Shown piece by piece: positions 2,609-52,816 of a stretch of DNA of 54,601 bases. A program made the position numbers and the translations under genes. The notes beneath the pieces were generated by a model. It saw nothing but the letters and a program-made list of their open reading frames with translations, had not been told where the DNA came from and ran no database searches. Numbering within the stretch: position 1 is the stretch's first letter; the number at the start of each line of letters is the position of its first letter. The DNA lies in NCBI GenBank assembly GCA_944323115.1, contig CALURG010000074.1, positions 1 to 54,601 on the forward strand, written 5' to 3'. Origin of the DNA: Candidatus Gastranaerophilales bacterium (GTDB lineage: Bacteria; Cyanobacteriota; Vampirovibrionia; Gastranaerophilales; Gastranaerophilaceae).

Positions 2609-2628
2609 ATATTTTATTAAAAATAAAA

Positions 2629-2978
2629 AGGAGCAGCTCATAAGCCGGGTTCTGTTTTTAGATAATCATCTGTCTCGACTTGCAGTTGCCTGCAAGCTCC
2701 AGCGGTTTGTCAAAAGACGGCGGGTCACCTTAACCTTTTAGTCAACCTTGCACCCAACCGGGGTTTACCTGGCCAAGACCTCTCAGCCTTGCCGGTGAGC
2801 TCTTACCTCACCGTTGCACCATCGCCTGTTTTCCTGAAAAGGAATCATCGGCAGTCTGCATTTCTGTGGCACTGTCCTCACGGTCGCCCGCACCTGATGT
2901 TATCAGGCGGTCTGCCCTAAGGTGCCCGGACTTTCCTCACAGAATTTTTCGTCTGTGCGATTATCCGACTGCTCCTTA
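2629..2978 (-). ncRNA. rnpB: RNase P RNA (class A)
   Basis: This is the catalytic RNA of RNase P, which matures tRNA 5' ends. Read on the minus strand, the 5' conserved region GAGGAAAGTCCGGGC lies at 2938-2924. The 3' conserved ACAGAACCCGGCTTA lies at 2655-2641. The ends pair to form helix P1 (about 2970-2978 with 2629-2637). A run of T on the minus strand follows P1 and would end transcription. The length of about 350 nt is normal. The 5' end agrees with a -10 box placed 5-7 bases upstream. Confidence 0.96.
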
Positions 2979-20679: not shown

Positions 20680-20758
20680 AAGTTTAGATTTCCTTGTTTT
20701 TATTTTTTATTTAAATTTTGATTTTAATTTTAATATAAACAGATTTTTATTTTATAAT

Positions 20759-21040
20759 TTTCATATAGTCAACTGACCCCGACTACTTGTTGAACCTGTG
20801 CATTAGTCAAGTCCATTCATTGCGAACAAGTCCAGCACAGGCAACAAGCGGAATCAGACGGGGCTTTGCCCCATGCGAAGGAAAACGTTGAGTTTTCCGA
20901 AGCGTCTGATTTCAAGACAGTGCATGGGGTCACTTCCGCAAAATGCTAGACTTGGCGTCACTCGCTACCTCTCACAAATATGCCACTGGCATATTTACTC
21001 GGCAGAGTGTGTACACTTCTACAAGCGAGTCCGCCTCAGA
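20759..21040 (+). repeat. intergenic structured element, copy 1 (three-way junction plus side domains)
   Basis: This G+C-richer island lies in the 390 bases between the SDR gene and dxr. It has three folded parts. Part A is a 14-bp stem (20786-20801 with 20835-20848, two bulged A), with CAAGTCCA repeated in its loop. Part B is a three-way junction: outer stem 20852-20860 with 20903-20911, hairpin 20861-20864/20868-20871, and hairpin 20880-20886/20892-20898. Part C has GGCG..ACTCGC near 20953-20965 pairing loosely with GCGAGT..CGCC near 21024-21034. It encloses a perfect 9-bp hairpin centred near 20987. Part B recurs at 27041 and 52621. No transposase is linked. Confidence 0.7.
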
Positions 21041-21069
21041 CATTGTATTTAAGAGGGGATAAAACACAA

Positions 21070-22221
21070 ATGAAGATTTCAATATTAGGTTCAACAGGTT
21101 CAATTGGCAGACAGGCAGTGGAAGTAATCCAAAAAATGCCGGGCTTTTTTGAGGTTGTTTCTCTGTGCGGGGGTGACAATGTAGAACTTTTGAGGCAGCA
21201 GATTAAACTGTTGAATCCAAAAAATGTTTGTGTAAAATCAGAATCAAATGCCCAGCTTTTGGAAAAAGAATTTCCGAAAATTAATGTATTTCACGGAGAT
21301 GAAGGGCTTGTTGAAATTGCGTCAGACAAAACAAATGAAAGAATACTTGTTTCTGTTTCGGGGAAAACCGGCTTAAAACCTACGCTCGCAGCAATAGAAA
21401 AAGGTGTTGATATAGCACTTGCAAACAAAGAGACTCTTGTAATGGCCGGTGATATCGTAATGAAACGGGCAAAAGAAAAAGGCGTAAAAATTCTGCCTGT
21501 TGACTCAGAACACGGTGCGATTCACCAGTGTCTTTCAAACAGAAAAGAAGTTGAAAAACTTATTATCACAGCTTCCGGCGGACCTTTCAGAGAAAAAACA
21601 ATAGATGATATAAAACACGCAACCGTAGAAGAAACACTTCATCACCCGAGATGGAATATGGGAAAAAAGATTACCATAGATTCCGCTACGCTCATGAACA
21701 AAGGGCTTGAAGTTATTGAAGCACATCACCTTTTTGATATGCCTTATGACAAAATACAGGTTGTTGTGCACCCGCAGAGTATTGTACACAGTGCAGTCGA
21801 ATACGTTGACGGAAGTGTAATTGCACAGCTGGGTTTTCCGACTATGCATATTCCAATCCAATACGCTTTAACTTATCCGAATCGTTTTGAAGGAATTGAA
21901 ACAAGAAATTTTGATTTTATAAAAGCTGCAAGATTGGACTTTGACGCACCTGATTTTGAAAAATTTCCGTGTCTGAAATTGGCTTTTGAAGCCGGCAAAG
22001 CCGGTGGAACAGTTCCCGTTGTAATGAATGCCGCAAATGAAGAAGCCGTTTTTGCTTTTTTAAATGAAAAAATTTCTTTGTGGAATATATATGAAATTAC
22101 AAACTTTATGGTTAACTCGCATGAAAATATTGAAAATCCTTCAATTGAACAAATCTTTGAAACGGATGAAAAAGTGCGTAATTCTGTTCGGAATTTGATA
22201 AAAGATGAAAAATTTGTGTAA
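21070..22221 (+). CDS. dxr: 1-deoxy-D-xylulose 5-phosphate reductoisomerase
   Basis: This 383-aa cytoplasmic enzyme converts DXP to MEP with NADPH, the first committed step of the MEP pathway. The NADPH motif is GSTGSIGRQ at residues 6-14. Metal and substrate residues lie in PVDSEHGAIHQCL, ASGGPFRE and the downstream MNKGLEVIEAHHLF region. An in-frame ATG at 20980 would add 30 residues, but these fall inside the repeat element. The ATG at 21070 gives the standard N terminus and has GAGGGG upstream. ispH, the last step, is in the same window at 4170. Transcription may pass through the structured element. Confidence 0.96.
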   Translation: MKISILGSTGSIGRQAVEVIQKMPGFFEVVSLCGGDNVELLRQQIKLLNPKNVCVKSESNAQLLEKEFPKINVFHGDEGLVEIASDKTNERILVSVSGKTGLKPTLAAIEKGVDIALANKETLVMAGDIVMKRAKEKGVKILPVDSEHGAIHQCLSNRKEVEKLIITASGGPFREKTIDDIKHATVEETLHHPRWNMGKKITIDSATLMNKGLEVIEAHHLFDMPYDKIQVVVHPQSIVHSAVEYVDGSVIAQLGFPTMHIPIQYALTYPNRFEGIETRNFDFIKAARLDFDAPDFEKFPCLKLAFEAGKAGGTVPVVMNAANEEAVFAFLNEKISLWNIYEITNFMVNSHENIENPSIEQIFETDEKVRNSVRNLIKDEKFV

Positions 22222-27040: not shown

Positions 27041-27176
27041 CGAAATCGGACGGGGCTGAAGCGAAGCGGAACGCCCCTTGCGAGCGGAAACGTTGAGTTT
27101 TCGTGAGCGTCCGTATTTCAAGAGGCGGATTCCGTGCGGGCACGCCGTGTGAGCAAAGCGAACCCAGTGCCCATGT
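27041..27176 (+). repeat. intergenic structured element, copy 2
   Basis: It shares the three-way junction with copy 1. The outer stem is 27042-27052 with 27108-27119 (one bulged T). The first hairpin is GGGC 27053-27056 with GCCC 27073-27076. The second hairpin is 27085-27091 with 27097-27103 around the loop GTTGA, as in copy 1. Several pairs differ from copy 1 on both sides (for example A-T becomes G-C in the outer stem). Its 3' tail matches copy 3 (GGATTCCGTGCGG against AAATTCCATGCGG). GGGCAC (27138-27143) can pair with GTGCCC (27168-27173). Confidence 0.7.
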
Positions 27177-52620: not shown

Positions 52621-52816
52621 AAAATTGGCCTAAAGCAAAGCAAAGCAAAACACCCCATGTGAATCCGGGTTACTCCGGCGGAAAATCCGTATTTTAAGAG
52701 GCAAATTCCATGCGGAGCTGACTGAAAGAAATGAGGGAACGCTCCATGCAAGGGACATCTCTTTTCCCAAACACCGAAAATCAAATAGGCAGTCAGAGCC
52801 AATTGACTATATGAAA
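52621..52816 (+). repeat. intergenic structured element, copy 3 (decayed)
   Basis: It aligns with copy 2 at its core. The outer stem is AAAAT-T-GG (52621-52628) with CC-G-T-ATTTT (52687-52695, bulged T kept). The first arm has drifted (GC to AT changes). The second hairpin is replaced by CCGG-CCGG (52665-52668 with 52675-52678). The 3' box AAATTCCATGCGG matches copy 2. Its far edge (52789-52816), read in reverse, matches the left edge of copy 1 (CATATAGTCAAYTG). It fills most of the gap between priA and maf. Confidence 0.6.

What the first reader, a model, noticed from the sequence alone, without database searches (positions are those of the whole stretch)
20759..21040. Large folded intergenic element before dxr, built of three modules
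A 280-base island, richer in G+C than its surroundings, folds into a 14-bp stem, a three-way junction with two hairpins and a 3' domain with a perfect 9-bp hairpin. No gene explains it. It could be a new structured RNA, a non-autonomous mobile element or a regulatory leader for dxr.
Basis: seen in the sequence. Interest (0 to 1): 0.72.

Follow-up and report, generated by a model that had tools for sequence, protein, structure and literature searches.

The report
Hairpin-built mobile repeat before dxr
The folded DNA before the dxr gene is one copy of a short jumping element without genes, spread in up to about 150 copies through genomes of one group of gut bacteria; it is assembled from interchangeable hairpin pieces, and the enzyme that moves it is still unknown.

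Summary
In detail: window 20759-21042 (284 nt) folds far better than shuffles and the named stems are there. It is not a dxr-specific RNA. It is one copy of a dispersed, non-coding mobile repeat of a Gastranaerophilales genus. Its 19-nt left end occurs 730 times in 19 of 23 genus genomes (up to 158 in one; backwards control 0); elsewhere in the order only one neighbouring genus carries many. Empty sites in relatives, including a dxr leader, show insertion without target duplication into AT-rich intergenic DNA. Here it directly follows the TATAAT of the presumed dxr promoter, so it is probably transcribed as a long leader addition. The element is a conserved frame carrying exchangeable hairpin cassettes; three other copies in this genome lack the 72-nt middle cassette. 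Helix P2 shows strong compensatory change (four pair types at one pair). In one genome orientation follows GC skew (36 of 38 copies where skew is clear) rather than gene direction; two other genomes did not show this. Five candidate enzyme families do not track copy number. Best reading: a PATE-like non-autonomous element moved in trans, perhaps through single-stranded DNA at replication forks; the mover is unidentified.

The parts
20759..21042 (+). whole element; ends TTTCATATAGTCAACTGAC ... GCCTCAGACA (an A/T before it, here 20758, may belong to it)
   Evidence: 115 left ends, 77 of them with the right end within 700 nt; empty sites
20759..20777 (+). left end TTTCATATNGTCAACTGAC with a small palindrome GTCA-AC-TGAC
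   Evidence: 730 matches in 23 genomes at <=1 mismatch, 0 for the reversed control
20774..20780 (+). P1 5' arm (TGACCCC), pairs with 20926-20932 (GGGGTCA)
   Evidence: helices 1 and 2: 95.5% and 94.3% of cells paired; one both-sided change in one sequence
20926..20932 (+). P1 3' arm
20795..20801 (+). P2 5' arm (CCTGTGC), pairs with 20835-20841 (GCACAGG)
   Evidence: covarying: one pair with CG, GC, UA and AU types (24 of 56 changed on both sides), a second 20 of 56
20835..20841 (+). P2 3' arm
20849..20920 (+). optional middle cassette B (72 nt): own stem GAATCAGAC/GTCTGATTTC with two inner hairpins
   Evidence: absent from the own-genome copies at C1, C79 and C86; similar modules in other contexts
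20921..20950 (+). conserved strand TGCATGGGGTCACTTCCGCAAAATGCTAGA joining the two domains
   Evidence: alignments A1 and A2
20966..21009 (+). optional hairpin cassette C (TACCTCTCA...CGGCAGAGTG) with the perfect 9-bp hairpin 20976-20996
   Evidence: a short loop (ACTCCG) stands in its place in other copies; C-type hairpins also occur after GGGGTC
21019..21042 (+). right end CTACAAGCGAGTCCGCCTCAGACA with a GAG..CTC hairpin (kept in many, not all, copies; not counted)
20730..20758 (+). presumed dxr promoter TTAATA-17-TATAAT, ending where the insert begins
   Evidence: consensus match only; 2 found, 1.4 expected; TATAAT within 80 nt upstream of dxr in 13 of 15 relatives
21070..22221 (+). dxr, 1-deoxy-D-xylulose-5-phosphate reductoisomerase
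   Evidence: TIGR00243 466 bits, over its cut-off of 316; frame

Best explanation
Shown: a dispersed, lineage-restricted, non-coding element (two-ended copies 71-593 nt) with recurrent ends, inserted without target duplication into AT-rich intergenic DNA, one copy of it into the dxr leader. Shown: it is a mosaic of a conserved frame (left end, P1/P2 domain, right end) and optional hairpin cassettes (B, C and others), some of which occur in other repeats. Inferred: it is non-autonomous and moved in trans by an enzyme that reads its folded ends, most likely as single-stranded DNA at the replication fork; the cassettes are themselves small mobile or recombining hairpins nesting in loops. Inferred: in this genome dxr is transcribed from its old promoter through the element, giving a long structured leader that may lower or buffer expression.
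For: Copies: 730 left ends in 19 of 23 genus genomes, control 0; 24 of 383 sampled order genomes, 5 of 52 genera, with more than 1 per genome only in genera g1 and g23 (its control gave 1); covariance model 17 of 286 genomes, 3 of 50 genera. Empty sites: copy L236 of G009 is absent from G012 and G007, copy L213 of G022 from G012, and a G012 copy (C16:8884) from G022. dxr: relative L018 has TTTTATTTTATAAT followed directly by an AT-rich leader. No duplication: identical flanking 3-mers in 1, 4-mers in 0, 5-mers in 1 of 77 two-ended copies. Structure: 49 cells changed on both sides against 13.1 +/- 2.8 in shuffles, 0 of 500 as high. Modularity. Strand: in G014 36 of 38 copies lie with this strand on the C-rich strand where |skew| >= 0.04, 40 of 48 over all 20 stretches; over 144 copies of several genomes the flank skew in element orientation averages -0.027 +/- 0.007 (s.e.m.), negative in 90 (G014 copies included); neighbours share a strand in 43 of 64 (G014) and 30 of 41 (G012, G015, G010; partial lists compiled by hand).
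Against: No mover found. Y1 transposase PF01797 in 8 of 23 genomes (4 of the 10 with 37 or more hits, 4 of the other 13), none in G014 or G015 with 84 and 158 copies. The GC-skew association is absent in G015 and G012 (18 for, 16 against; skews mostly weak), and in G014 8 of 48 copies go the other way: 5 of 5 in the C15 stretch, 2 of 7 in C17, 1 of 3 in C12. If the G-rich strand is leading (recalled, not tested), the strand whose fold is conserved lies on the leading-strand template, not on the lagging-strand template where IS608 is active (PMC5371812). Copies were collected by their left end, so its constancy is partly by construction; 38 of 115 lack this right end within 700 nt, some with another right part (L124, L125). 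Helix P2a is poorly kept (columns 35-93 paired in 21 of 56). One of three joined sites with relatives (L192) was not clean (80% identity, gap at the join). No autonomous form was seen in about 800 kb of stretches.
Confidence: 0.72

Rival explanations
1. A structured RNA (regulatory leader or small RNA) kept for its function at each site; spread is secondary.
For: Compensatory changes in P2; U-G instead of C-G at one P1 pair in 27 of 56 sequences, which pairs only on this strand; conserved stretches such as CAACAAGTGCATGGGGTCACTT; in the window it follows TATAAT.
Against: Nearest long open frames have mixed orientation: 25 (+,-), 25 (+,+), 18 (-,-), 11 (-,+) of 79 copies. Left-end counts vary from 0 to 158 between genomes of one genus. 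Not found before dxr of relatives except a right end in L026. No Rfam match.
Confidence: 0.12
2. The REP partner of a RAYT tyrosine transposase (REPtron).
For: A RAYT ORF in G010 (L139; NF047646 REP_Tyr_transpos, 143 bits against a cut-off of 80) lies between two copies in direct orientation, the second starting right after its stop codon.
Against: GTAG/GTCG-tagged hairpins (GGTTGGG...CCCAAC), the known REP signature (PMC3733652), lie before all four Y1 ORFs printed and somewhere in 8 of the 12 Y1 loci. Of the 12 Y1 loci only L139 is flanked by the element, and L142 has a partial left end about 670 nt from its ORF. High-copy G014, G015, G009, G022, G005, G006 have no Y1 match.
Confidence: 0.08
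3. A decayed IS200/IS605 transposon or omega-RNA element of TnpB, or a bridge-RNA element of IS110.
For: No target duplication, near-terminal palindromes, strand bias in one genome.
Against: TnpB domain in 1 of 23 genomes, IS110 in 1 of 23. The flanks show only A/T on the left and a TT preference at +3,+4 on the right, not a 4-5 nt target.
Confidence: 0.12
4. A retroelement moved by a reverse transcriptase.
For: Fold of one strand conserved; one copy (L165) has about 20 bp of the same flank on both sides.
Against: RVT_1 in 3 of 23 genomes, of which only G022 is high-copy; no consistent flank duplication. Truncation patterns were not counted.
Confidence: 0.03

Closest known systems
PATEs, palindrome-associated transposable elements (Haloquadratum walsbyi, PMC3119063; passages read)
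   Same: Too short to code; no target duplication; near-terminal palindromes; many copies; heterogeneous members; new insertions although the host's IS200-type transposases are almost all broken.
   Different: Bacterial host; no related IS605-type transposon found; covarying frame; short inverted similarity of the ends (GTC..TGA / TCAGAC).
SMR-A short mobile repeats (PMC3119063, passages)
   Same: Small repeats that insert without duplication into the palindromes of PATEs, like cassettes B and C here.
   Different: SMR-A are about 110 bp with prominent terminal repeats; the cassettes here are about 40-95 nt, mostly at fixed places of the frame, with differing inner hairpins. That they move on their own is inferred.
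GTAG REPs and RAYTs (PMC3733652; passages read, some from the abstract)
   Same: Intergenic palindromic repeats in many copies; RAYTs exist in the genus.
   Different: No GTAG tag; far larger; not tied to RAYT presence; the genus has a separate GTAG-type repeat.
IS608/ISDra2 single-strand transposition (PMC5371812; passages read)
   Same: Orientation following replication, seen here in one genome; no target duplication (for IS605-type elements, PMC3119063).
   Different: No 4-5 nt target (IS608 target recalled); no TnpA found apart from RAYTs; the strand with the conserved fold would lie on the other template.

Membership tests
PATE | too short to code for a transposase | tested here: met
   two-ended copies 71-593 nt; no gene in the window's copy
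PATE | no target duplication | tested here: met
   3-mers 1, 4-mers 0, 5-mers 1 of 77; two clean empty sites differ from the join by one base
PATE | near-terminal palindromes | tested here: inconclusive
   left GTCA/TGAC nearly invariant, but copies were chosen by that motif; right GAGG/CCTC in one type, only GAG/CTC in the other
PATE | no terminal inverted repeats | tested here: inconclusive
   only GTC(AAC)TGA against TCAGAC, about 6 positions, offset from the left end
PATE | ends shared with an IS605-type transposon of the host | tested here: not met
   TnpB in 1 of 23 genomes; Y1 in 8 of 23, the three tested being RAYTs with other repeats; draft genomes, so a missed gene is possible
GTAG REP / REPtron | GTAG (or CGTC) tag beside a 20-40 bp palindrome | tested here: not met
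   conserved ends are TTTCATATNGTC and TCAGACA
MITE of a DDE transposon | terminal inverted repeats and target duplication | tested here: not met
cis-regulatory RNA leader | constant position and strand before related genes | tested here: not met
   36 of 79 downstream frames on the same strand
Rfam family | match above gathering score | tested here: not met
any of the above | excision or insertion by a named enzyme | not testable with these tools
   needs experiment

The most novel reading that the evidence does not exclude
A class of gene-less mobile elements built like nested dolls from interchangeable hairpins, in which each hairpin cassette moves or recombines on its own, and the whole spreads at replication forks using only a host enzyme (no dedicated transposase was found in the genomes with most copies). 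The left palindrome and P1 share the same TGAC strand, so two folds exclude each other and could act as a switch between a cut-ready and a resting state.
Probability: 0.15. Interest if true: 0.82.

Novelty: new variant of a known kind. Interest (0 to 1): 0.55.

Why it matters
Mobile repeats that lack both a transposase and target duplications are poorly explained; for the SMRs of Haloquadratum the authors called the mode of movement enigmatic (PMC3119063, passages). This genus gives a bacterial set with hundreds of copies, relatives with empty sites, covarying structure and hairpin cassettes caught in many combinations, so rules of assembly and the identity of the mover become testable. For the window it also corrects the annotation: the dxr leader has been lengthened by an insertion, rather than being an evolved leader RNA of dxr.

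Tried and rejected
Chance fold: rejected. A dxr-specific leader: rejected as a general role. Known RNA family: none. Autonomous form: in 40 stretches of up to 20 kb (20 of G014, 10 of G015, 10 of G012) I listed left and right ends and read the list by eye; the only left end followed on its strand by a right end 0.7-6 kb away, before another left end, is in L321 (4.6 kb), and the three long frames between are ordinary genes (GidB, a TPR protein, a KdtA-type transferase). This covers only part of those genomes. Mover by family: Y1 8/23, TnpB 1/23, RVT_1 3/23, IS110 1/23, serine recombinase 17/23 genomes; the last is in 9 of the 10 genomes with 37 or more hits and 8 of the other 13, and is missing from G005 with 49 copies, so it does not explain the spread. 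IS91-type Y2 enzymes, other HUH proteins and DDE families were not searched (cap reached). Helix P2a (CTTGTTG/CAACAAG): its 3' side is nearly invariant while the 5' side drifts, so I do not claim it. Domain 2 was aligned from 14 of the 15 sequences listed (L203 left out; L135, of the same kind, was kept), and its pairs were not counted. For alignment A1, 56 of 59 distinct compact sequences were used, the three longer than 110 nt dropped; these come from 77 of 146 distinct left-end copies. Papers: searches (7 of 7 papers listed; 15 of 585; 10 of 9,836) showed no title on this repeat in Gastranaerophilales or Melainabacteria; only listings were seen, and most subscription journals and preprints are not held.

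Full report
Observation. No gene explains it and Rfam has no match there. The gene after it is dxr (TIGR00243); the one before it, on the other strand, is a short-chain dehydrogenase-like gene.

It is a dispersed repeat. The element found 17 partial or full matches in its own genome and matches in 21 of 23 genomes of the genus. The 19-nt left end TTTCATATNGTCAACTGAC with at most one mismatch occurs 730 times in 19 of the 23 genomes (158 in G015, 96 in G010, 84 in G014, 80 in G012, 8 in the window's own genome), while the same pattern read backwards occurs 0 times. In 383 sampled genomes of the order it is found in 24, from 5 of 52 genera; outside the genus only genus g23 has more than one per genome (32 in G186, 3 in G181), and one of the three single hits (L281) does not look like the element (control 1). 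A covariance model of the left domain gave the same picture: 17 of 286 genomes, 3 of 50 genera at E <= 0.001. Record titles of the closest dxr relatives mostly name Candidatus Gastranaerophilales.

Ends and insertion. Of 115 distinct left ends collected by then, all are preceded by A or T (94 A, 21 T); 77 also have a right end ...CTCAGACA within 700 nt, followed by a T preference at +3 and +4 (49 and 60 of 77); 38 do not. Copies were collected by these motifs, so the constancy of the ends is partly by construction. Identical flanking 2-mers occur in 12, 3-mers in 1, 4-mers in 0 and 5-mers in 1 of 77, so there is no target duplication; one copy, L165, has about 20 bp of flank on both sides. Five joined flanks were searched in the genus: three had relatives spanning the join (L236, L213, L192), two (L221, L231) only one-sided matches. 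For L236 and L213 the relative has the empty site, one base shorter than the join, so the first base of the element may be that A; at a third site G012 carries a copy where G022 is empty and there the extra A is ambiguous. L192 is not clean (80% identity, gap at the join). At dxr, relative L018 has, by eye, the same upstream gene, the same TTTTATTTTATAAT and no element.

The dxr site. The insert begins directly after a sigma-70-like site TTAATA-17-TATAAT (two such sites found against 1.4 expected, so the match alone is weak). What supports it is conservation: TATAAT lies within 80 nt of dxr in 13 of 15 relatives, and in the window it is about 310 nt away. None of 80 dxr loci has the left end before dxr in the flank held; L026 has a right end before its TATAAT, near its contig start; L029 and L031 have pieces of a different repeat there. 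A transcribed 285-nt addition to the leader is therefore likely but was not observed.

Architecture. The copies in C1, C79 and C86 of the same genome join 20848 directly to the sequence after 20920, without the 72-nt cassette B. B-type cassettes were found in 31 distinct places in my loci, 23 in this frame position by my filter; of the other 8, five lie at the same place in diverged copies, one (L218) shares the left frame only, and two (L349, in tandem) lie in another setting. B-like modules also occur in other repeats at C3, C53 and C26 and at window 27073-27123 (partial matches, 82-91%). Inside B the two small hairpins are themselves swapped (GGGGC/GCCCC or TGGCAC/GTGCCA; GGAAAAC/GTTTTCC or GTCCC/GGGAC). 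Cassette C (CTCT...AGAG hairpin) occurs in the loop of the right domain or after GGGGTC. Two-ended copies run from 71 to 593 nt.

Structure under selection. On 56 compact left domains the given helices P1, P2 and P2a are paired in 92% of cells; cells changed on both sides are 49 against 13.1 +/- 2.8 in shuffles, 0 of 500 as high, and sliding the partner by 1-3 columns drops pairing to 33-37%. The number of further pair types (17) is no higher than in shuffles (16.7). Nearly all the signal is in P2 (24 and 20 of 56 both-sided changes at two pairs); RNAalifold alone predicts most of P2 and the left palindrome but not P1. P2a is not supported. One P1 pair is U-G in 27 and C-G in 24 of 56, which keeps pairing on this strand only; this is one column and may be shared descent.

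Strand. In G014, copies on a contig tend to share a strand (43 of 64 neighbours at least 1 kb apart). In 20 stretches of up to 20 kb chosen because they hold copies, the element's strand is the C-rich one in 40 of 48 copies, and in 36 of 38 where |skew| is at least 0.04; the C15 stretch goes the other way with weak skew (5 of 5), as do 2 of 7 in C17 and 1 of 3 in C12. Gene direction does not explain it: stretch L321 has 17.2 kb of minus-strand and 1.2 kb of plus-strand frames, L325 the reverse, yet both carry plus copies. In G015 and G012 there is no association with local skew (18 for, 16 against; mostly weak skew), though neighbours share a strand in 30 of 41 for G012, G015 and G010 (partial lists). 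Over 144 copies of several genomes, flank skew in element orientation is slightly negative (-0.027 +/- 0.007, 90 of 144). IS200/IS605 elements follow replication direction through the lagging-strand template (PMC5371812). Taking the G-rich strand as leading (recalled, not tested here), the strand drawn here would be on the leading-strand template, so a single-strand model needs the other strand as the moving one.

Mover. Y1 transposases are in 8 of 23 genomes; the three tested are RAYTs (NF047646), with a separate GTAG/GTCG hairpin. One of 12 Y1 loci lies between two copies of the element, which I read as two insertions near a gene, not as a composite transposon, because the copy-rich G014 and G015 have no Y1 match. 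TnpB, RT and IS110 are nearly absent; serine recombinases are common but do not follow copy number. These are draft genomes and may lack the gene.

Comparison. The nearest described things are PATEs and the SMR-A repeats that insert in their palindromes in Haloquadratum (PMC3119063, passages). The resemblance in size, lack of duplication and nesting is close, but a shared IS605-type transposon, which links PATEs to their mover, was not found. I therefore call it PATE-like, not a PATE.

Verdict. An ordinary kind of thing (a gene-less mobile repeat) in an unusual form (hairpin mosaic with selected structure, unknown mover). Interest 0.55.

Noticed in passing
window 52753-52816 (-), repeat remnant to about 52600: Diverged copy of the left end (TTTCATATAGTCAATTGGC) followed by other hairpin pieces; CM E 0.024.
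   Followed up: partly
window 27050-27125 (+): B-type cassette without the frame, just after a hairpin followed by a run of T.
   Followed up: partly
window 2625-2976 (-): RNase P RNA, bacterial class A, 244 bits.
   Followed up: no
L137, L139, L143, L144 upstream of the Y1 ORF: RAYT genes with their own GTAG/GTCG-tagged hairpin GGTTGGG...CCCAAC, also seen in both orientations nearby: a REPtron of this lineage.
   Followed up: partly
L029 and L031, dxr leader; also L121 and L123: A different repeat family ending CTGCGACACTAGATTAGA; in L029 it lies directly before dxr, in L031 somewhat further upstream.
   Followed up: no
L155, L161, L115: A further repeat with ...GAGGGCTNNGTAATTATAACAA, nested in or near copies of the element.
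   Followed up: no
L165 (G020:C2): One copy has about 20 bp of flank (TTCTCCACCCCAACGATCAA) on both sides.
   Followed up: no
window 20980-21069: The dxr frame is open through the right domain from an ATG inside cassette C, so gene callers may choose a start 30 codons too early.
   Followed up: no
G014: Contig C5 has the length of CALVBT010000005.1 (136,145), so G014 is probably MAG BRZ_PB__bin5.
   Followed up: no
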